From Streptomyces sp. NBC_01231 (GTDB lineage: Bacteria > Actinomycetota > Actinomycetes > Streptomycetales > Streptomycetaceae), in NCBI GenBank assembly GCA_035999765.1, contig CP108521.1:9796001-9860000 (forward strand): a stretch of DNA of 64,000 nucleotides. The letters are read 5' to 3'. The notes below the pieces were generated by a model. It was not told the DNA's origin and ran no database searches. It worked only from the letters and a program-made list of their open reading frames with translations. Shown here piece after piece: positions 14,877-24,383 of the stretch (within the stretch, counting starts at the first letter, position 1; each line of letters starts with the position of its first letter). Made by a program: the position numbers and the translations under genes.

Positions 14877-15071
14877 TCATTTACAACGGCTGACTCGGTG
14901 AGCCGGTCGTTGGTGCCGCCGCCGACGGTGGCCGGTGAGGCCGGACGGCGGATCGGCGCCCGCTTTTCGGATGACCTCACCGACTGTCGTCCGGGGACGG
15001 CAGGCCCCCTTGGCAGAGGATCACGGTCGGCGGCCATCCCCTGCCTGCCGTTCGTCCGCCCGGAGGCAGCC

Positions 15072-16778
15072 GTGCACATCCTGCTCCTAGCCAGCGCGTT
15101 CAACAGTCTCACCCAGCGCGTCCACGCCGAGCTGCGCGACCGCGGTCACACCGTGGCGGTGGAACTGGCCCTGCCCGGCAGTCCGTTGCAGGACGTCGTA
15201 CGGCGGCACGCACCGCAGCTGATCGTGGCGCCGATGCTGAAGGCGGTGATCCCCGAGGAGGTGTGGACAGCGCACACCTGCCTCATCGTCCATCCGGGGC
15301 CCGTGGGCGACCGTGGACCGTCCTCCCTGGACTGGGCCATTCACGAGGGCGCGGACCAGTGGGGCGTCACCGTCCTGCAGGCCGACGAGGAGATGGACGC
15401 CGGTGACGTGTGGGCCTCCGTACCCTGCCGGGTCCCTCCGGTGTCCAAGAGCGAGCTGTACCGGGGTGAGATCGCCGACGCCGCGCTCGAAGCCGTCCTG
15501 CTCGCCGTGGAGCGCTTCGCCGGCGGAACCCACGTACCGCGCAAGCAGGACGCGGCAGGCGGCGCCGACGCTCGGCTGCGCGCACGGCCGTACCTCGACC
15601 AGAGCGTCCGGCGGATCGACTGGGCCGAGGACTCCACGCAGGACCTCCTGCGCAAGCTGAGAGCGGCGGACTCGCAGCCCGGTGTGCTGGATGAGCTGCT
15701 CGGCGGTGAGTGGTATCTGCACGGCGGTCATCTTGAGAGCGTGTTGCGCGGTCGCCCGGGCGAGTTGCTGGCCACCCGGGCCGGAGCGGTCTGCCGGGCC
15801 ACCAGGGACGGCGCCGTGTGGATCCCCGAACTGCGGCCCCGGCGTGGGCCCGGGCAGCCACCCACGTTCAAACTGCCCGCCGTGCGTGCCCTGGGCGACC
15901 GGCTGCCTCCGCTGCCCGAGCACGACCTGCCGCCGCTGCCACGGGCGCGGCATGCTACCTGGACGGACATCCGCTACCGGGAGGACGGGAACGTGGGCTT
16001 CCTCGCGTTCTCCTTCCCCGGCGGCGCCATGAGCACGGAGCAGTGCCGGCGTCTGCTGGACGCCTACCGGGAAGCATGCGCGCGTCCCACGTCGGTGCTG
16101 GTGCTGGGCGGCGAACGGGACTTCTTCTCCAACGGGATCCATCTCAACGTCATCGAGGCCGCCGACGACCCCGCCGCCGAGTCCTGGGCGAACATCAACG
16201 CCATCGACGATCTGGTCGAGGCGGTCCTGACGACGACCGACCGGGTGGTGGTCTCCGCGGTCGCGGGCAACGCCGCGGCGGGCGGGGTGATGCTCGCCCT
16301 GGCGGCCGACGAGGTGTGGTGCCGCTCCGGCGCCGTGCTGAACCCCCACTACCGCCTGATGGGCCTGTACGGCTCGGAGTACTGGACGCACACCCTGCCG
16401 CGCAGGGTGGGCCCCGCGACCGCCGAACGGCTCATGCGTGAGGCTCTGCCGGTGAGCTCGGCGGGCGCCCTGAGCCTCGGTCTCGTCGACCGGGTGGTCG
16501 ACTGCGGTCCTGACGACTTCGCGCGGGAGGTCGGCGCCCTGGCGGCGCGGCTGGCGTCACTTCCGGCGACGGCGTCACGGATCACCGGGAAGAAGACGGA
16601 GCTGGACCGGCTGGAGAGCGCGACCCCGCTGGCCGCCTTCCGTGAGCAGGAACTCGCCCGGATGCGCCGGACCTTCGACGACCCGCACGCCCCGTACCAC
16701 GCTCTGCGTCGTTCGTTCGTCCACAAGGAACGGCCGTCGTGCACCCCGCCGCACCTCGGTCCCGCCCCGCTCGCGTAG
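15072..16778 (+). CDS. hypX: HypX/HoxX hydrogenase maturation protein
   Basis: The 568-residue product joins an N-terminal formyltransferase-like domain (about 1-270; HPGPVGDRGPSSLDWAI and QADEEMDAGDVW) to a C-terminal crotonase-like domain (about 290-560; FFSNGIHLNVIEAA, AGNAAAGGVMLALAADE). HypX uses a formyl donor to make the active-site CO ligand during aerobic [NiFe]-hydrogenase maturation. The GTG at 15072 follows GGAGG by 5 bases and gives the family start VHILLLASAFNSL; an open extension of 58 residues upstream lacks homology. The gene ends 138 bases before the small-subunit gene. Its presence indicates maturation under oxic conditions. Confidence 0.92.
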   Translation: MHILLLASAFNSLTQRVHAELRDRGHTVAVELALPGSPLQDVVRRHAPQLIVAPMLKAVIPEEVWTAHTCLIVHPGPVGDRGPSSLDWAIHEGADQWGVTVLQADEEMDAGDVWASVPCRVPPVSKSELYRGEIADAALEAVLLAVERFAGGTHVPRKQDAAGGADARLRARPYLDQSVRRIDWAEDSTQDLLRKLRAADSQPGVLDELLGGEWYLHGGHLESVLRGRPGELLATRAGAVCRATRDGAVWIPELRPRRGPGQPPTFKLPAVRALGDRLPPLPEHDLPPLPRARHATWTDIRYREDGNVGFLAFSFPGGAMSTEQCRRLLDAYREACARPTSVLVLGGERDFFSNGIHLNVIEAADDPAAESWANINAIDDLVEAVLTTTDRVVVSAVAGNAAAGGVMLALAADEVWCRSGAVLNPHYRLMGLYGSEYWTHTLPRRVGPATAERLMREALPVSSAGALSLGLVDRVVDCGPDDFAREVGALAARLASLPATASRITGKKTELDRLESATPLAAFREQELARMRRTFDDPHAPYHALRRSFVHKERPSCTPPHLGPAPLA

Positions 16779-16916: not shown

Positions 16917-18005
16917 ATGACTGAGGCGACGCCGGGCACGGTCGGCGCTGCGGACGCGAACGGCGCGCTCGCCGACGAGACACCCACGATCCACATCCTC
17001 TGGATCAACGCGGGGCTGAGCTGTGACGGCGACTCGGTCGCGTTGACGGCGGCCATGCAGCCCAGCATCGAGGAGATCGTGCTCGGTGTGCTGCCGGGTC
17101 TTCCGAAGATCGCCGTCCACTGGCCGCTCATCGACTTCGAGTGCGGTCCGATCGGCGGCTCGGACACGTTCATCGAGTGGTTCTTCAAGGGGGAGCGAGG
17201 CGAGATCGACCCGTTCGTCCTGGTCGTCGAGGGCTCCGTCCCCAACGAGGCGATCAAGCCCGAGGGCTACTGGTGCGGCTTCGGCGACAACCCGGAGACC
17301 GGCCAGCCGATCACCACCAGCGAGTGGATCGACCGGCTCGCCCCGAAGGCCCTGGCCGTCGTCGCCATCGGCACCTGCGCCACCTACGGCGGCATCCACG
17401 CCATGGCGGGCAACCCGACCGGCGCGATGGGCGTACCGGACTACCTCGGCTGGGACTGGAAGTCCCACGCCGGCATCCCCATCGTGTGCGTCCCCGGCTG
17501 TCCGATCCAGCCCGACAACTTCTCCGAGACGCTCACCTATCTGCTCTACCAGGCGGCCGGTGCGGCCCCGATGATCCCGCTGGACGACAAGCTGCGCCCG
17601 ACCTGGCTGTTCGGGGCCACCGTGCACGAGGGCTGCGACCGTGCGGGCTACTACGAACAGGGCCAGTTCGCCCTGTCGTACGACTCGCCGAAGTGCCTGG
17701 TCAAGCTGGGCTGCTGGGGCCCGGTCGTCAAGTGCAACGTGCCCAAGCGCGGCTGGATGAACGGGATCGGCGGCTGCCCCAACGTCGGCGGTATCTGCAT
17801 CGCCTGCACCATGCCCGGGTTCCCCGACAAGTTCATGCCGTTCATGGACGAGCCCCCTGGCGCCAAGGTGTCGAGCAACGCCAGCGAGGCCTACGGCGCC
17901 GTGGTCCGCAAGTTGCGGTCGATCACCGCGAAGACGGTGGACAAGGAGCCCAAGTGGCGCCGCACCGGAGACAAGATCACCACCGGCTACCGACCCCCGT
18001 GGTGA
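16917..18005 (+). CDS. hhyS: group 1h [NiFe]-hydrogenase small subunit
   Basis: The 362-residue small subunit carries three Fe-S clusters. Proximal ligands appear to be Cys36, Cys154 (GTCATYGG) and Cys195 (PGCPIQP), with the fourth in SCDGDS, where Asp39 replaces the usual second Cys; this 3Cys/1Asp cluster is a mark of actinobacterial high-affinity enzymes. Distal ligands are probably His237, Cys240, Cys260 and Cys266, and medial ones Cys273, Cys294 and Cys297. No twin-arginine signal is present, so the enzyme is not Tat-exported through this subunit. The start follows AGGAGG by 7 bases. The large subunit follows 83 bases later. Confidence 0.95.
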   Translation: MTEATPGTVGAADANGALADETPTIHILWINAGLSCDGDSVALTAAMQPSIEEIVLGVLPGLPKIAVHWPLIDFECGPIGGSDTFIEWFFKGERGEIDPFVLVVEGSVPNEAIKPEGYWCGFGDNPETGQPITTSEWIDRLAPKALAVVAIGTCATYGGIHAMAGNPTGAMGVPDYLGWDWKSHAGIPIVCVPGCPIQPDNFSETLTYLLYQAAGAAPMIPLDDKLRPTWLFGATVHEGCDRAGYYEQGQFALSYDSPKCLVKLGCWGPVVKCNVPKRGWMNGIGGCPNVGGICIACTMPGFPDKFMPFMDEPPGAKVSSNASEAYGAVVRKLRSITAKTVDKEPKWRRTGDKITTGYRPPW

Positions 18006-18088: not shown

Positions 18089-19873
18089 ATGGCACCGAAG
18101 ACGAAGGCGGCCGGAGACGGCAGCGGCCTGGTGGAGATGGCCTGGGACCCGATCACCCGGATCGTGGGCAGCCTCGGCATCCACACGAAGATCGACTTCA
18201 AGCAGAAGCGGGTCGCCGAGTGCTACAGCACGTCGTCGGTCTTCCGCGGCTACAGCGTCTTCATGCGCGGCAAGGACCCCCGCGACGCCCACTTCATCAC
18301 CAGCCGCATCTGCGGCATCTGCGGGGACAACCACGCCACCTGCTCGGTGTACGCGCAGAACATGGCGTACGGCGTGAAGCCCCCGCACCTCGGCGAGTGG
18401 ATCATCAACCTCGGCGAGTCCGCGGAGTACATGTTCGACCACAACATCTTCCAGGAGAACCTGGTAGGGGTCGACTACTGCGAGAAGATGGTCAAGGAGA
18501 CCAACCCCGGCGTCCTCGAACTCGCCGAGCGCACCGAGGCGCCGCACGCGGGCGAGCACGGCTACCGCACCATCGCCGACATCATGCGCTCGCTGAACCC
18601 CCTGGAAGGGGAGTTCTACCGCGAGGCCCTCCAGGTCAGCCGCTACACGCGCGAGATGTTCTGTCTGATGGAGGGCCGCCATGTGCACCCCTCCACGCTC
18701 TACCCGGGCGGCGTCGGCACCATCGCCTCCGTCCAGCTCTTCACGGACTACCTCAGCCGGCTGATGAAGTACGTGGAGTTCATGAAGCGCGTCGTACCCC
18801 TGCACGACGACCTCTTCGACTTCTTCTACGAGGCGCTGCCCGGCTACGAGGAAGTGGGCCGCCGACGGGTCATGCTCGGCTGCTGGGGCGCGCTCAACGA
18901 CCCCGAGTACTGCGACTTCACCTACGCCAACATGACCGACTGGGGCCGGCGCATGTTCGTCACCCCCGGCATCGTCGTCGACGGCAAGCTCGTCACCAAC
19001 GACCTCACCGAGATCAACCTCGGCATCCGCATCCTGCTGGGCAGCTCCTACTACGAGGACTGGCAGGGCCAGGAACAGTTCGTCACCCATGACCCGCTCG
19101 GCAACCCGGTGGACCCGCGCCACCCGTGGAACCAGCACACCATCCCCGCCCCGCAGAAGCGGAACTTCGACGACAAGTACAGCTGGGTCATGTCCCCGCG
19201 CTGGTTCGACGGCAAGGACCACCTCGCCCTGGACACCGGCGGCGGCCCCATCGCCCGCCTCTGGTCGACCGCCCTGTCCGGACTCGTCGACACCGGGTAC
19301 GTCAAGGCCACCGGCCACAGCGTGGTCATCAACCTGCCCCGCACCATGACCAGGCCCGAGACCAGCTTCGAGTGGAAGATCCCGAAGTGGAGCAACGCGC
19401 TGGAACGCAACCGCGCGCGCACCTACTTCCAGGCCTACACGGCCGCCATCGCCCTGCACTTCGCGGAGAAGGGCCTCGCGGAGGTCCGGGCCGGACGCAC
19501 CCAGACCTGGGAGAAGTTCGAGGTCCCGGACGAGAGCATCGGTGTCGGCTTCACCGAGGCGGTCCGAGGCGTCCTCTCCCACCACATGGTGATCCGCGAC
19601 GGCAAGATCGCCAACTACCACCCGTACCCGCCGACCCCCTGGAACGCCAGCACCAGGGACTCCTTCGGTACGCCGGGCCCGTACGAGGACGCCGTCCAGA
19701 ACACGCCCATCTTCGAGGAGAACACCCCGGAGAACTTCAAGGGCATCGACATCATGCGCGCCGTCCGCAGCTTCGACCCCTGTCTGCCCTGCGGCGTCCA
19801 CATGTACGTCGGCGGCGGCAAGACGGTGAAGTCGATGCACGTGCCCACCGGCCTGAGCGGGCTGGGCGGATGA
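18089..19873 (+). CDS. hhyL: group 1h [NiFe]-hydrogenase large subunit
   Basis: The 594-residue large subunit binds the Ni-Fe centre through two CxxC pairs, RICGICGDNH (Cys75, Cys78) near the N-terminus and DPCLPCGVH (Cys565, Cys568) near the C-terminus. A 23-residue tail follows His571, which the protease at 23172 would remove on nickel insertion. The family oxidises H2, including at atmospheric levels, and feeds respiration. ATG 18089 gives the usual N-terminus; a GTG at 18038 lacks a ribosome-binding site. The stop overlaps the NifU-like gene (ATGA). This is the structural core of the locus. Confidence 0.96.
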   Translation: MAPKTKAAGDGSGLVEMAWDPITRIVGSLGIHTKIDFKQKRVAECYSTSSVFRGYSVFMRGKDPRDAHFITSRICGICGDNHATCSVYAQNMAYGVKPPHLGEWIINLGESAEYMFDHNIFQENLVGVDYCEKMVKETNPGVLELAERTEAPHAGEHGYRTIADIMRSLNPLEGEFYREALQVSRYTREMFCLMEGRHVHPSTLYPGGVGTIASVQLFTDYLSRLMKYVEFMKRVVPLHDDLFDFFYEALPGYEEVGRRRVMLGCWGALNDPEYCDFTYANMTDWGRRMFVTPGIVVDGKLVTNDLTEINLGIRILLGSSYYEDWQGQEQFVTHDPLGNPVDPRHPWNQHTIPAPQKRNFDDKYSWVMSPRWFDGKDHLALDTGGGPIARLWSTALSGLVDTGYVKATGHSVVINLPRTMTRPETSFEWKIPKWSNALERNRARTYFQAYTAAIALHFAEKGLAEVRAGRTQTWEKFEVPDESIGVGFTEAVRGVLSHHMVIRDGKIANYHPYPPTPWNASTRDSFGTPGPYEDAVQNTPIFEENTPENFKGIDIMRAVRSFDPCLPCGVHMYVGGGKTVKSMHVPTGLSGLGG

Positions 19874-20400
19874 GCGCGGGGACGGCGACCGTACCGGTGA
19901 ACGCGGAGCAGACCGGACGCCGCGTCGAGGAGGTGCTGGAACGGCTGGCCGCGAGCGGGGACCCGGCCGCCGCCGCGGCGGAGGAACTCGTACGGTCCCT
20001 CATGGACTTCTACGGTGCCGGCCTCGCCCGCATCATCCACCTGCTGTCCTCCGCTCCCGGCGAACCGCCGGTGGGACTGCTCGGTGACGAACTGGTCGCG
20101 AGCCTGCTCGTCCTGCACGACCTGCACCCCGAGGACCGCGACACCCGTATCGCCCGGGCGCTCGACAGCGTCCGCGAACACGCCCTGGACGTCGTGGACT
20201 TCGACGAGGAGAGCGGCACCCTGACGCTGCGCACCCGGGAGGCCGGCGGCTGCGGTTGCGGCTCCGGCACAGGGGCCCTGGAAGCCGCGGAGGCGGCCCT
20301 CGCCTGCTTCGCACCGGAGGTCAGGACCGTCGACGTACAGACCGCACCCGTGGGGCCCACGCTCCTCCAGATCGGCACCGCACCGACGGGGGCCCGATGA
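19870..20400 (+). CDS. NifU C-terminal-like protein of the hydrogenase operon
   Basis: The 176-residue product has a helical N-terminal region (about 10-85). Its C-terminal half resembles the NifU Fe-S scaffold domain, with GGCGCGSGTGALEAAEAAL in the place of the usual GGCxxCxxS motif. Such domains carry Fe-S clusters to target proteins. Here it could load or repair the three small-subunit clusters, including the unusual Asp-ligated one. The ATG overlaps the hhyL stop, and the next gene overlaps in turn, so it is firmly in the operon. Scaffold or delivery function is inference. Confidence 0.8.
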   Translation: MSAGTATVPVNAEQTGRRVEEVLERLAASGDPAAAAAEELVRSLMDFYGAGLARIIHLLSSAPGEPPVGLLGDELVASLLVLHDLHPEDRDTRIARALDSVREHALDVVDFDEESGTLTLRTREAGGCGCGSGTGALEAAEAALACFAPEVRTVDVQTAPVGPTLLQIGTAPTGAR

Positions 20401-21059
20401 CGGCGTCCCCGGCGACGCGCACGCCCGGCCTGCGGAGGTTCCTCACCGAGAGACCTCCGCAGCCCGAACGGTGCGAGCTGTGCGCCGTGCCGGTGGGGGC
20501 GGACCACCGTCACCTCGTAGACACCGAGAAACGCGCCCTCGCCTGCGCCTGCGCCCCCTGCGCGCTGCTGATGGAACAGCCGGGCGCCGCCGCGGGCCGC
20601 TTCCGCACGGTCCCGGCCCGCTACCTCACCGACCCCCGGCACCACCTCGACGACAGTGCCTGGGAGGCGTTGCAGATCCCGGTCGGCGTCGCCTTCCTCT
20701 TCCGCAACGCGGCGCTCGACCGACTGGTCGCCCTCTACCCGAGCCCGGCCGGAGCCACCGAGAGCGAACTCGAACCGGCCACCTGGACGGACGTCCTCGG
20801 TGGCAGCCGCCTCGCCGGACTCCTCGAACCCGACGTGGAGGCGCTGCTGCTGCGCCGCACCGACGGCCGCTGCGAGTGCCACCTCGTACCGATCGACATC
20901 TGCTACGAACTCGTCGGCCGTATGCGCCTGTTGTGGCAGGGCTTCGACGGCGGAGCCGAGGCCCGCGCCGCGCTCGACGCGTTCTTCGCGGACGTCGCGC
21001 GACGCGTCCGGCCCGTGGACGAGGCGGGGCACCCGTCGGACGAGGCGGTCCGCCCGTGA
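20397..21059 (+). CDS. DUF5947-like protein of the hydrogenase operon
   Basis: The 220-residue product matches the pattern I associate with DUF5947. An N-terminal metal-site candidate (Cys26 and Cys29 in CELC; Cys50, Cys52 and Cys55 in CACAPC) is followed by a mixed alpha/beta region and a further CECH pair at about 162. No enzyme fold is evident. It overlaps both neighbours by 4 bases. The cysteine pattern suggests zinc or Fe-S binding; a role in hydrogenase assembly or electron transfer is inferred from position. Confidence 0.72.
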   Translation: MTASPATRTPGLRRFLTERPPQPERCELCAVPVGADHRHLVDTEKRALACACAPCALLMEQPGAAAGRFRTVPARYLTDPRHHLDDSAWEALQIPVGVAFLFRNAALDRLVALYPSPAGATESELEPATWTDVLGGSRLAGLLEPDVEALLLRRTDGRCECHLVPIDICYELVGRMRLLWQGFDGGAEARAALDAFFADVARRVRPVDEAGHPSDEAVRP

Positions 21060-21748
21060 CGCAGTTCTCCTTCGCCTGCACCGGCGTCCGCGCCGACCGG
21101 TACGCCGCCGGACCGACCCTCGTCTTCCGGCTGCGTGTCACCGCGGCCGACAACGCACACGTGCACGCCGTCGCGCTGCGCTGCCAGATCCGTATCGAAC
21201 CCGCCCGCCGGACCTACGAGTCCGCCGAGGCCGACGGGCTGGCGGACCTCTTCGGTGAGCGCTCCCGCTGGGGCAGCTCGCTCCAGCCGGTGCAGTTCGC
21301 CCAGGTCGCGCTCATGGTCCCGAGTTTCACCGGGGAGATCGAAGCCGACCTCGTCGTGCCCTGCACCTACGACATGGACATCGCCGCGACCCGCTACTTC
21401 GCGGCTCTCACCGACGGCGACGTTCCGCTGCTGATGCTCTTCTCCGGTACGGCCTTCACCGGAGCCGGCGGTTTCCAGGTCGAGCCGGTCCCGTGGGACC
21501 GGGAGGCGGCCTTCCGGATGCCGGTCGCCACCTGGCGGGAGATGATCGAGCAGCACTTCCCCGGGTGCGGCTGGATCCGGCTGCCCCGCGACACCATGGA
21601 CGCCCTCCTCGCCTACCGCTCCCGGCACGCGCTGGCCTCCTGGGAGTCGACCCTCAAGGCACTGCTCGACGACAAAGGCGCCGCGGACCCGCCGCGGAGG
21701 GACCCGCTGCGCGCGCTCACCGGCACCACCGGAAGGACGGATTCGTGA
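21056..21748 (+). CDS. DUF6084-like protein of the hydrogenase operon
   Basis: The 230-residue product is predicted rich in beta strands, with motifs such as VHAVALRCQIRIEPARR, VPCTYDMDIAATRYFAAL and VPLLMLFSGTAF. No signal peptide or membrane helix is visible. I associate the pattern with DUF6084 but know no biochemical function. The GTG at 21056 overlaps the previous stop (GTGA), and the downstream gene overlaps in the same way. Tight packing within hhySL accessory genes implies a dedicated role in hydrogenase biogenesis or complex structure. Confidence 0.7.
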   Translation: MTQFSFACTGVRADRYAAGPTLVFRLRVTAADNAHVHAVALRCQIRIEPARRTYESAEADGLADLFGERSRWGSSLQPVQFAQVALMVPSFTGEIEADLVVPCTYDMDIAATRYFAALTDGDVPLLMLFSGTAFTGAGGFQVEPVPWDREAAFRMPVATWREMIEQHFPGCGWIRLPRDTMDALLAYRSRHALASWESTLKALLDDKGAADPPRRDPLRALTGTTGRTDS

Positions 21749-23175
21749 CCGTGACCGCGTTCGCCCCCGAGACCGAGGAGCGGTTCACCCTCGCCCGGCA
21801 GGTGGCCGACGCCGTTCTCTTCGAGGGCTATGTCCTCTACCCGTACCGCGCTTCGGCGGCCAAGAACCGGCTGCGTTGGCAGTTCGGGGTGCTCGTGCCG
21901 CCCGGCTGGGGCGCCGAGTGCGAGGAGCACGACTTCCAGCACACCGAGTGCCTGATGGAACCGAAGGCGGGCGCGACCCTCTCGGTCGAGGTGCGCTTCC
22001 TGCACGCCCGGCGCCGGATCGTGCAGCAGCTCCGCCCGGAAGGCCGCTACGACGTGGTTCCCGAACTCCACCTGGAAGACCGGGTGTTGGTGCCCTGGGA
22101 CGAGGGTGACGAGGAGCGCGTCGAGGTGGTCGCGTCGGTGGACGAGCTCCTCGGCGACGGCGTCACACATCCCTTCCGACGCCCCGCCCGGGAGGACACC
22201 ACACCGGTTCTGGACGCGGCCGGCCGTACCGTCGGCCGACTGGTCCGGCGGTGCGAGGAGATCAGCGGGACGGTCCGGCTGTCCGCAAGCGAACTCGACG
22301 GTCCCTACCGGACCCTGCGGCTGACCGCCGTCGTCGAGAACACCAGCGACTGGACACCCCCCGAGGGCCGCGGCGCCGACCGGGACGCGGCACTGCCGCA
22401 CTCACTGGTGGCCACCCACATGCTCATGGCCCTCAGCGCCGGATCGTTCCTGTCGATGACCGATCCCCCCGAGTGGGCCAAGGGTGCGGTCGCCGCCTGC
22501 CGCAACCTGCACACCTGGCCCGTACTCGCCGGAGAACCCGGCCGCGCCGACCTCGTGCTGTCCTCGCCGATCATCCTGGAGGACCATCCCGCGATCGCCC
22601 CGGAGAGCCCCGGCGCGCTCTACGACGCCACCGAGATCGACGAGATCCTCGCGCTGCGCACCGCGGCCCTCACCGACGAGGAGAAACGCGAGGCCCGGGG
22701 CACCGACGAGCGGGCCGCCGCCGTGATCGAGCTGGCGGACTCGATGCCGCCCGAGGTTCTGGAGCGACTGCACGGGGCGGTGCGCAGCCTGCGCGAAGTG
22801 ACCGGCCCGGGCCCGGCCGCCCCGGACGGCGGCTTCCCCGACGAGTACGGGGTGCAGCGGCCCGACACCCCCTGGTGGGACCCGGCGAGCGAGGCGGGAT
22901 TCGACCCGGCGGAGGACCGGGTGGTCGTGGACGGCCGGTCGGTGGGCCGGGGCAGCCGCGTCGAACTGCACCCGGGCCTGCGGCGCACGGACGCGCAGGA
23001 CATCTTCCTGCGGGGCAGCACCGCGAAGGTCGAGGCGGTGCTGCACGACGTCGACGGCGGGGTGCACCTGGCGGTCACGGTCGAGGGCGACCCGGGCGCC
23101 GACATCCGCCGCGAGCAGGGACGGTTCCTGTACTTCCAGCCCGACGAGGTCACACCGCTGGAGGACGACGTATGA
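21745..23175 (+). CDS. uncharacterised 476-residue protein of the hydrogenase operon
   Basis: I do not recognise the family. The N-terminal part (about 1-300) opens with FTLARQVADAVLFEGYVLYPY and includes PHSLVATHMLMALSAGSFLSM and LSSPIILEDHPAIAPESPG. An acidic helical middle (about 300-360) follows. The C-terminal 75 residues (GRGSRVELHPGLR to YFQPDEVTPL) look like a small beta-barrel similar in size to HypC or OB folds. It is soluble, with GTG 21745 overlapping the previous stop and an ATGA overlap into the protease gene. A chaperone or scaffold role is plausible but unproven. Confidence 0.72.
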   Translation: MTVTAFAPETEERFTLARQVADAVLFEGYVLYPYRASAAKNRLRWQFGVLVPPGWGAECEEHDFQHTECLMEPKAGATLSVEVRFLHARRRIVQQLRPEGRYDVVPELHLEDRVLVPWDEGDEERVEVVASVDELLGDGVTHPFRRPAREDTTPVLDAAGRTVGRLVRRCEEISGTVRLSASELDGPYRTLRLTAVVENTSDWTPPEGRGADRDAALPHSLVATHMLMALSAGSFLSMTDPPEWAKGAVAACRNLHTWPVLAGEPGRADLVLSSPIILEDHPAIAPESPGALYDATEIDEILALRTAALTDEEKREARGTDERAAAVIELADSMPPEVLERLHGAVRSLREVTGPGPAAPDGGFPDEYGVQRPDTPWWDPASEAGFDPAEDRVVVDGRSVGRGSRVELHPGLRRTDAQDIFLRGSTAKVEAVLHDVDGGVHLAVTVEGDPGADIRREQGRFLYFQPDEVTPLEDDV

Positions 23176-23714
23176 ACCCCTCCCCGCAGTCAGGCCCCAA
23201 AACCCTCGTCGCCGGCATCGGCAACATCTTCCTCGGGGACGACGGCTTCGGCGTGGAGACCGCCCGCCGGCTCGCCGAGCGCGACCTGCCCGGACACATC
23301 GAGGTCGTGGACATCGGGGTGCGCGGGGTGCACCTCGCCTACCAGCTCCTGGACGGCTACCACACCCTCGTCCTCGTGGACGCCACGGCGCGCGGCGAAG
23401 CCCCCGGCACGCTGTACGTGATCGACCACGACATCGGCGGGAGCCCTTCGCCCCCCGCCGCCACGCTGGACGGCCACCGGATGACCCCCGACGCCGTCCT
23501 GGCGCTGCTGGGCACCCTGTGCGCCGGGACCGGCGGGGAACCACCACGCCGCGTCCTGGTCGTCGGCTGCGAACCGGCCTCGGTGGAGGAGGGCATCGGC
23601 CTCAGTGCGCCGGTGTCCGACGCCGTACCGGAGGCCGTCCGGCTGATCGAAGAGCTGCTGCGGGACGGCGAGCCGTCCGCGGCGCAGGCCTCAACCGCTG
23701 AGGCTACGACATGA
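23172..23714 (+). CDS. hydrogenase maturation protease (HyaD/HycI family)
   Basis: The 180-residue product has the family N-terminus, VAGIGNIFLGDDGFGVE, with the nickel-sensing Asp near residue 24, then VVDIGVRG and VLVDATARG (second acidic ligand). It would cleave the 23-residue tail of HhyL after His571 once nickel is in place. The usual metal-site histidine is probably in the LDGHRMTPDAVL segment. The ATG overlaps the previous stop, and the gene ends 11 bases before a 34-residue ORF. Confidence 0.9.
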   Translation: MNPSPQSGPKTLVAGIGNIFLGDDGFGVETARRLAERDLPGHIEVVDIGVRGVHLAYQLLDGYHTLVLVDATARGEAPGTLYVIDHDIGGSPSPPAATLDGHRMTPDAVLALLGTLCAGTGGEPPRRVLVVGCEPASVEEGIGLSAPVSDAVPEAVRLIEELLRDGEPSAAQASTAEATT

Positions 23715-23725
23715 GGAGAGACGGG

Positions 23726-23830
23726 ATGAAGAAGATCGTCATCGGCGGAGCGGCCGTCGCCGCCATGGTCGCTGTCGTCGTCGAGGTGCTTCCCGACCTG
23801 AGGCGCTACCTGCGCATCCGACGGATGTGA
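23726..23830 (+). CDS. 34-residue single-span membrane microprotein (DUF6893-like)
   Basis: This small ORF encodes 34 residues. A start Met-Lys-Lys is followed by one hydrophobic helix (about 4-21, IVIGGAAVAAMVAVVVEV) and a basic tail, LPDLRRYLRIRRM. AGGAGAG lies 5 bases before the ATG, a strong translation signal. It resembles the streptomycete DUF6893 microproteins. Topology by positive charge would place the Arg-rich tail in the cytoplasm. Its place between the protease and hypA suggests a membrane tether or partner for the otherwise soluble hydrogenase; this is inference. Confidence 0.7.
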   Translation: MKKIVIGGAAVAAMVAVVVEVLPDLRRYLRIRRM

Positions 23831-23975: not shown

Positions 23976-24383
23976 ATGCACGAGATGTCCGTCGCGCTGG
24001 CCGTCGTCGAGCAGGTGGCAGAGGCCGCCGCGCGGGCAGGTGACGTCACGGCGGTGCGCTCGGTACGGCTCCAGGTGGGCGAACTGGCCGGCGTCGTACC
24101 GGACGCGCTCGCCTTCTCCTTCGAACTGGCCTGCGCCGGAACCCTGCTGGAAGGCGCCGAACTGATCACCGAGGCGGTGCCGGGGCGGGCCCGCTGCACA
24201 CCGTGTGCGCTCGACTGGGCCGTCGGCATGCCACCCCGGCTGACCTGCCCCGAGTGCGGCAGGGCGTGTACCGACCTGCTCGCGGGCCGGGAACTGCAGA
24301 TCGTCGACGTGCACTGGGAGGACAGCCACAGGAACGGCCCACCGCACGTGCCCACCCGCGAACCGATCTCCGAGGAGTGCTGA
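23976..24383 (+). CDS. hypA: HypA hydrogenase nickel metallochaperone
   Basis: The 135-residue product begins MHEMSVA, where His2 is the conserved nickel ligand. It carries a zinc site made of CTPC and CPEC (about 75-100). HypA passes nickel to the large subunit together with HypB. The ATG follows GGAGG at a long 10-base spacing and is fixed by the invariant MHEM start. A C-terminal tail (HRNGPPHVPTREPISEEC) extends beyond the usual family end. A 145-base gap separates it from the microprotein, so a secondary promoter is possible. HypB follows after 3 bases. Confidence 0.93.
   Translation: MHEMSVALAVVEQVAEAAARAGDVTAVRSVRLQVGELAGVVPDALAFSFELACAGTLLEGAELITEAVPGRARCTPCALDWAVGMPPRLTCPECGRACTDLLAGRELQIVDVHWEDSHRNGPPHVPTREPISEEC

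What the first reader, a model, noticed from the sequence alone, without database searches (positions are those of the whole stretch)
19870..23830. Uncharacterised accessory module welded to a high-affinity [NiFe]-hydrogenase
Directly after hhyL come a NifU-like protein, DUF5947-like and DUF6084-like proteins, an unrecognised 476-residue protein, the maturation protease and a 34-residue membrane microprotein. The first five of these genes overlap by 3-4 bases, so they are translationally coupled. The known Hyp set is present elsewhere in the locus, so these extra proteins are not replacing Hyp functions. They may build or protect the Asp-ligated Fe-S cluster, or form part of the active complex or its electron outlet.
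Basis: partly seen in the sequence, partly recalled or inferred. Interest (0 to 1): 0.78.

Follow-up and report, generated by a model that had tools for sequence, protein, structure and literature searches.

The report
Helper genes of hydrogen-scavenging enzyme
Beside the enzyme that lets soil bacteria live on traces of hydrogen in air sits a widely shared set of helper genes, probably for building the enzyme, and a tiny membrane protein that may be the missing part that holds it at the cell membrane.

Summary
In a Streptomyces-type genome, hhyS-hhyL is followed by a NifU-like HhyE, DUF5947, DUF6084, a 476-residue protein without a Pfam family (O476), the maturation protease and a 34-residue DUF6893 membrane microprotein. 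Every junction from hhyL to the protease overlaps by 4 bases. That such hypothetical proteins are specific to group 1h hydrogenases is in print, and HhyE is needed for Hhy activity in Mycobacterium smegmatis. New here:
(1) O476 accompanied every intact hhyL with long enough flanks, in six phyla; HhyE, DUF5947 and DUF6084 are each missing in some lineages.
(2) O476's C-terminal barrel is fused to the maturation protease in Acidobacteria, all of O476 in one actinobacterial assembly. DUF6084-O476-protease also occurs as a separate convergent unit. This points to maturation rather than an electron outlet.
(3) HhyE here has lost its CxxC; DUF5947 keeps 5 Cys and 2 His invariant.
(4) A single-helix protein ending in (P)D-x-x-RYLxIRxM-stop was found at 93 fetched loci with the module, in all six phyla, and at none of 16 sister-hydrogenase loci. 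It is a candidate for the unidentified membrane anchor of this cytosolic enzyme. Function is inferred throughout.

The parts
14898..16778 (+). HypX-like gene (formyl transferase + enoyl-CoA hydratase domains), context
   Evidence: Pfam
16917..18005 (+). hhyS, small subunit with CDGD (Asp in place of the fourth Cys)
   Evidence: motif counts in relatives
18089..19873 (+). hhyL, large subunit, group 1h type (closest solved relative 5aa5 HofG)
19870..20400 (+). hhyE, short NifU-like form; CxC instead of CxxC, no C-terminal two-CxxC extension
   Evidence: PMC6883350
20397..21059 (+). DUF5947 protein; invariant C26 C29 H37 H39 C50 C52 C55
21056..21748 (+). DUF6084 protein
21745..23175 (+). O476: N-terminal domain about 1-345, disordered linker 346-378, C-terminal SH3-like barrel about 380-475
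23172..23714 (+). HycI/HyaD-type large-subunit maturation protease
23726..23830 (+). DUF6893 microprotein, one membrane helix, C-terminal tail PDLRRYLRIRRM
23976..24383 (+). hypA, start of the Hyp genes (context)

Best explanation
The stretch holds two functions. First, DUF5947, DUF6084 and O476 together with the protease form a group-1h-specific maturation set. O476 is its core: it recognises the HhyL precursor (and perhaps HhyS) with its N-terminal domain and brings in the protease through its C-terminal SH3-like barrel, so that the HhyL C-terminal peptide is cut only at the right stage of assembly. DUF6084 works with O476. DUF5947 is a metal-binding (5 Cys, 2 His) assembly factor. HhyE is an older NifU-like helper that in Streptomyces has lost its Cys pair and acts, if at all, as a scaffold. 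Second, the microprotein spans the membrane once and shows a conserved basic C-terminal tail (xD-x-x-RYLxIRxM) to the cytosol, which docks the otherwise soluble HhySL at the membrane near the quinone pool. Shown here: gene order, exclusive association, fusions, domain splits, losses, conserved residues, hydrophobic helix and tail. Inferred: every binding partner, the metal, the maturation role, the topology and the anchor role.
For: Maturation: O476's C-terminal domain is fused in frame to the protease in 8 of 80 surveyed hhyL loci, all with acidobacterial record titles, and the whole of O476 in 1 of 80 (L142). A database protein of Edaphobacter aggregans shows the fusion as a 274-residue 'hydrogenase maturation protease'; all 120 listed relatives, itself included (120 best of 7,996 scored), are 271-293 aa and cover >=99% of it. 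In other loci the C-domain is a separate ORF between O476-N and the protease. In 5 verrucomicrobial loci the block DUF5947-DUF6084-O476 lies upstream of hhyS (with the protease in 4 and HhyE in 1), and in two Methylacidiphilum-like genomes DUF6084-O476-protease is a convergent unit of its own. O476 is the only one of the four present at every intact hhyL (>=65% identity) whose flanks are long enough, including L135, L163, L164, L166, L006, L063 and L064; the loci without it end at a contig edge or have a broken hhyL (L065, L066). The solved C. necator enzyme is PDB 5aa5 (one search names HofG); that it holds only the two subunits is recalled. Anchor: 97 tail-bearing ORFs in 93 loci, 97 of 97 ending in Met, Tyr at -7 in 96 and Arg at -8 in 95; 84 follow the protease, 6 lie between O476 and protease, 3 directly before an hhyS, 4 elsewhere. 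A strict tail pattern hit 93 ORFs: 91 within 1.5 kb of hhySL or module genes, 2 of 22,318 ORFs farther off in such loci (both also hydrophobic-helix ORFs) and 0 of 6,397 ORFs in 16 sister loci plus 4 truncated or decayed 1h loci. PMC7174314 (passages read): the SolV enzyme has no helix, signal or anchor, yet is membrane-associated and loses H2 affinity when isolated; the partner is called unknown.
Against: No interaction was tested; no complex prediction was available. Fusion to the protease is of O476 only, not of DUF5947 or DUF6084, so their part in maturation rests on neighbourhood alone. The protease lies away from O476 in L006, L063 and L166 and was not found on the stretch in L064. C. 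necator's enzyme is described as cytoplasmic and of low affinity (PMC7174314), although its locus has the microprotein; so the tail does not guarantee firm membrane binding. 15 of 93 complete loci lack the strict tail: five have a relaxed version (L089, L113, L131, L137, L153), one a distant copy (L090), two end at the protease (L052, L119), and seven show none (L006, L059, L060, L063, L109, L135, L166). So the microprotein, too, is dispensable in some lineages. The tail profile started from a query ending in Met, so its conservation is partly built in. Topology is inferred from charge alone.
Confidence: 0.55

Rival explanations
1. The extra proteins are subunits or carriers of the electron outlet: HhyE and DUF5947 pass electrons from HhyS to menaquinone.
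For: HhyE deletion abolished Hhy activity in M. smegmatis, and MSMEG_2717 (probably the DUF5947 protein, judged from its neighbour number and its stated homology to PHG067) was named as candidate acceptor (PMC6883350). DUF5947 has 5 Cys and 2 His identical in all 102-103 sequences with a residue there (103 aligned).
Confidence: 0.2
2. The set builds or guards the Asp-ligated proximal Fe-S cluster of HhyS.
For: Of 132 small-subunit hits read, 117 have CDGD, 2 CDGE (second copies in Acidobacteria), 12 CDGC (all in sister loci) and 1 none; only the first kind of locus has DUF5947/DUF6084/O476.
Against: A single evolutionary contrast. CDGD persists without HhyE and DUF5947 (L163, L164) and without DUF6084 as well (L166, L135). 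Of the four, only O476 tracks CDGD throughout, and its fusion is to the large-subunit protease.
Confidence: 0.15
3. The microprotein is not an anchor of the enzyme but a membrane regulator or a tether of the assembly proteins.
For: It usually follows the protease gene (84 of 97), and several acidobacterial versions are longer membrane ORFs sharing mainly the tail.
Against: In L163, L164 and L105 it lies directly before a small-subunit gene; in L105 before a small-subunit copy that has no large subunit.
Confidence: 0.3

Closest known systems
Group 1h (formerly group 5) [NiFe]-hydrogenase operon hofKG/PHG066-070 of Cupriavidus necator pHG1
   Same: Same genes in the same order: hhyS, hhyL, NifU-like, DUF5947, DUF6084, O476, protease; four unknown ORFs PHG066-069 and protease PHG070 are named in PMC4377017 (one passage read); a tail microprotein follows
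   Different: The C. necator NifU-like protein has no Cys at the CxxC site; the window's has CxC
HhyE of Mycobacterium smegmatis (MSMEG_2718)
   Same: Same position and NifU-like domain; shortened forms without the C-terminal domain are described (PMC6883350, parts 1-4 of 5 read)
   Different: The window's protein lacks the CxxC and the two-CxxC extension
HoxO/Q/R/T/V accessory proteins of the O2-tolerant membrane-bound hydrogenase
   Same: Enzyme-specific helpers encoded beside the subunits, one with Cys pairs (recalled; PMC6883350 cites a rubredoxin-related one)
   Different: DUF5947, DUF6084 and O476 matched no such family in the Pfam and NCBIfam scans
HucM of the group 2a hydrogenase Huc
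   Same: A non-catalytic protein that links a hydrogenase to the membrane (PMC10017518, passages read)
   Different: HucM has 188 residues and forms a tetrameric coiled-coil stalk; the DUF6893 protein has 34 residues with one helix; no PDB match
PetP of cyanobacterial cytochrome b6f and other SH3-like barrels
   Different: A common small fold; no functional link shown

Membership tests
Group 1h [NiFe]-hydrogenase | L1 TSRICGICGDNH and L2 SFDPCLPCGVH motifs of the large subunit | tested here: met
   Both in the window's HhyL alignment row; motifs as given in PMC5364354
Group 1h [NiFe]-hydrogenase | Asp ligand of the proximal cluster in the small subunit (CDGD) | tested here: met
   CDGD in the window's HhyS. 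That this Asp is the ligand is recalled; PMC7174314 states an Asp ligand in general
HhyE (full Fe-S form) | NifU-type CxxC | tested here: not met
   Window has CxC
HhyE (full Fe-S form) | C-terminal extension with two CxxC | tested here: not met
   176 residues, no extension; 27 of 116 HhyE-type hits have one. The window's protein is the short form
PF19372 DUF5947 | score over curated cut-off | tested here: met
   249.7 against 25 bits
PF19562 DUF6084 | score over curated cut-off | tested here: met
   324.1 against 25 bits
PF21833 DUF6893 | score over curated cut-off | tested here: met
   53.8 against 24.6 bits; of 10 tail proteins from other loci 6 are over the cut-off, 3 below, 1 has no match
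PF01750 hydrogenase maturation protease | score over curated cut-off | tested here: met
   53.4 against 23 bits
Rubredoxin / electron-carrying Fe protein (DUF5947) | rubredoxin-like fold with Fe(Cys)4 | tested here: inconclusive
   No confident fold match; metal not testable
Hydrogenase membrane anchor (microprotein) | binds the hydrogenase and holds it at the membrane | not testable with these tools
   Only helix, tail and neighbourhood shown

The most novel reading that the evidence does not exclude
Group 1h hydrogenases are held at the membrane by a widespread, overlooked microprotein: a single helix with a C-terminal docking peptide (xD-x-x-R-Y-L-x-I-R-x-M-COOH) that binds the small subunit. 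Because membrane contact raises H2 affinity, this 34-residue protein would be what turns a soluble hydrogenase into an air-scavenging one. The same tail is carried by longer membrane proteins in Acidobacteria and, in one Edaphobacter, accompanies a small-subunit copy next to a sensor kinase.
Probability: 0.35. Interest if true: 0.82.

Novelty: new variant of a known kind. Interest (0 to 1): 0.62.

Why it matters
Group 1h enzymes are thought to be a main biological sink of atmospheric H2. How these cytosolic enzymes attach to the membrane, on which their high affinity seems to depend, is stated as unknown in print (PMC7174314). A conserved membrane tail protein at the locus makes that question directly testable in tractable strains. 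The fusion of the unknown 476-residue family to the maturation protease gives a first concrete function to test for proteins that have been called 1h-specific hypotheticals since at least 2018 (PMC5900883). It also offers a short parts list for making active enzyme in other hosts.

Tried and rejected
Idea that mycobacterial HhyE is a NifU-DUF5947 fusion split in Streptomyces: rejected, because the M. intracellulare plasmid has both a long HhyE and a separate DUF5947.

DUF6084 as indispensable: rejected (absent from the loci L006, L063, L064, L166, L135; no match in genomes G128, G171, G448, G296 or in the S. cattleyicolor plasmid; one search warned that nothing rang in it, but the same model rang in 27 of 296). 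G448 is the only one of 19 Chloroflexota genomes with a >=75% HhyL that lacks DUF6084. G557 has DUF6084 but no HhyL match; there O476 breaks off after about 57 residues into unrelated sequence, which may be decay or a wrongly joined contig.

Results against or dropped: the cut at 900 bits let sister-hydrogenase loci into the group 1h class, so its table is not used for counts. In one search the class I first called 'sister' also held four truncated or decayed 1h loci (L065, L066, L074, L082). Whole-genome absence of HhyE was not tested.
Full report
What is there. The window lies in an 11.3 Mb single-contig genome, judged to be Streptomyces because all named entries among the 120 listed relatives of O476 are of that genus. 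Between hhyL and hypA are six reading frames: NifU-like HhyE, DUF5947, DUF6084, O476, the maturation protease and a 34-residue DUF6893 protein. Each junction from hhyL to the protease is a 4-base overlap, the usual sign of coupled translation.

What was already known. PMC5900883 (passages read) says that three highly conserved hypothetical proteins are specific to group 1h/5 hydrogenases and of unknown function. PMC4377017 (one passage) names four unknown ORFs, PHG066-069, before the protease PHG070 in C. necator. PMC6883350 (parts 1-4 of 5 read) shows that HhyE deletion abolishes Hhy activity in M. smegmatis and that an artificial electron acceptor does not rescue it. PMC12319191 (passages) reports four unknown genes by hhyL in methanotrophs and one NifU-like protein without a detectable domain. 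So the module as such is not new. DUF5947 and DUF6893 were in no paper of the held library and DUF6084 in one, on aurodox biosynthesis. Two searches for a membrane anchor or small membrane protein of Hhy listed nothing of the kind by title, nor did the 20 of 33 rows shown of a third, broad one.

Association. In 296 Actinomycetota genomes DUF6084 was found in 27, DUF5947 in 26 and O476 in 28; HhyL of >=65% identity in 28, counting partial genes and one remnant. Overlaps with HhyL are 24, 25 and 25. Thirteen genomes have only the 36-47%-identical sister hydrogenase: 12 of 13 have none of the three families, and G216 has DUF6084 and O476 on a contig that ends before hhyL would come. I fetched 27 stretches around the DUF6084 matches of 26 other genomes: 21 carry hhyL and 6 end at a contig edge first. 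In 201 Chloroflexota genomes DUF6084 is in 18, all among the 19 with HhyL of >=75% identity. In 194 Verrucomicrobiota genomes HhyL is in 3 and DUF6084 in the same 3 plus one.

Neighbourhood across phyla. 70 of 80 have DUF5947, DUF6084 and O476 in a row, 9 end at a contig edge first, and 1 (L135) has only O476 and the protease. 40 show hhyS-hhyL-HhyE-DUF5947-DUF6084-O476-protease exactly as in the window. Five verrucomicrobial loci have the block upstream of hhyS. Two Methylacidiphilum-like genomes have hhyS-hhyL facing a convergent DUF6084-O476-protease unit, with no HhyE at the locus and no DUF5947 match in the genome. S. cattleyicolor-type loci (L006, L063, L064) place O476 before hhyS and lack DUF6084.

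Asp-ligated cluster. Of 132 small-subunit hits read, 117 have CDGD, 2 CDGE, 12 CDGC and 1 none; all 12 CDGC are in sister loci. Only loci of the first kind have DUF5947, DUF6084 and O476. O476 was missing only where the contig ends or hhyL is itself broken (L065, L066).

The microprotein. Starting from the 34-residue protein, an iterative search of all ORFs in the fetched loci found 97 ORFs in 93 loci of all six phyla. All 97 end in Met; Tyr at -7 in 96, Arg at -8 in 95, Pro at -12 in 76, Asp at -11 in 80; mean net charge of the last 12 residues +2.6. A stricter tail pattern gave 93 ORFs; 91 end within 1.5 kb of hhySL or module genes, 2 lie farther off among 22,318 ORFs, and none occurs among 6,397 ORFs of 16 sister loci and 4 truncated or decayed 1h loci; the hydropathy maximum before the tail is 1.2-3.2 for the 91. 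78 of 93 complete loci have the strict tail; of the other 15, seven show no tail protein at all. Within 24 streptomycete-type sequences the 12 tail codons change most at third positions (1034 against 793 and 460) and single-change codons are more often silent than not (631 to 481), as expected for a translated gene. It follows the protease in 84 cases, lies between O476 and protease in 6 and directly before a small-subunit gene in 3. PMC7174314 (passages read) reports that the SolV group 1h enzyme lacks helices and signals, is nevertheless membrane-associated, and has Km 140 nM on membranes against 300 nM when isolated. In the SolV-like genomes the tail protein lies directly before hhyS. I therefore propose it as the anchor. 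Against this, C. necator's enzyme is described as cytoplasmic though its locus has the tail gene, and some lineages lack the gene.

Verdict. An established, conserved, poorly understood module; two new and testable leads (O476 with the protease, the tail microprotein). The maturation reading is moderately supported, the anchor reading plausible and unproven.

Noticed in passing
L091, L092, L094, L095, L098, L100, L105, L108 (3-7 kb upstream of hhyS): Eight acidobacterial loci have a second small-subunit gene without a large subunit beside it, upstream of hhyS. Between the two lie regulator-like ORFs: a histidine-kinase motif was found in 6 of 8 and a LuxR-type motif in 7 of 8; in L105 Pfam confirms a PAS histidine kinase and a LuxR response regulator. 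Two of the copies read CDGE. This may be a hydrogen- or redox-sensing small subunit.
   Followed up: partly
L006:13355-13900: In Streptantibioticus cattleyicolor a protein that looks hemerythrin-like (read by eye) lies between O476 and hhyS; L063 has no room for it.
   Followed up: no
L066: Streptomyces genome G107 keeps only a remnant: a piece of hhyS and a piece of hhyL in one frame, with none of DUF5947, DUF6084 or O476 found.
   Followed up: partly
L065:8229-10044: In G184 hhyL stops at about residue 320 and is followed at once by a hypE-like frame, so the rest of hhyL and the module are missing; deletion or assembly fault.
   Followed up: no
L054:10900-11250: In G042 no DUF5947 was found and its place is taken by a low-complexity Arg/Asp-rich stretch in frame between HhyE and DUF6084; it may be an assembly fault.
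   Followed up: no
L067-L072, L075-L081, L168, L169, L171: Sister hydrogenases (36-47% identical large subunit; CDGC in the 12 small subunits of this set that could be read) often carry a NifU-like protein and one or two proteases, but none of DUF5947, DUF6084, O476 or the tail protein.
   Followed up: partly
L003:13999-14097: The tail microprotein of C. necator pHG1 is not in the gene table shown for that record (the table is said to be incomplete), so it may have been overlooked.
   Followed up: no
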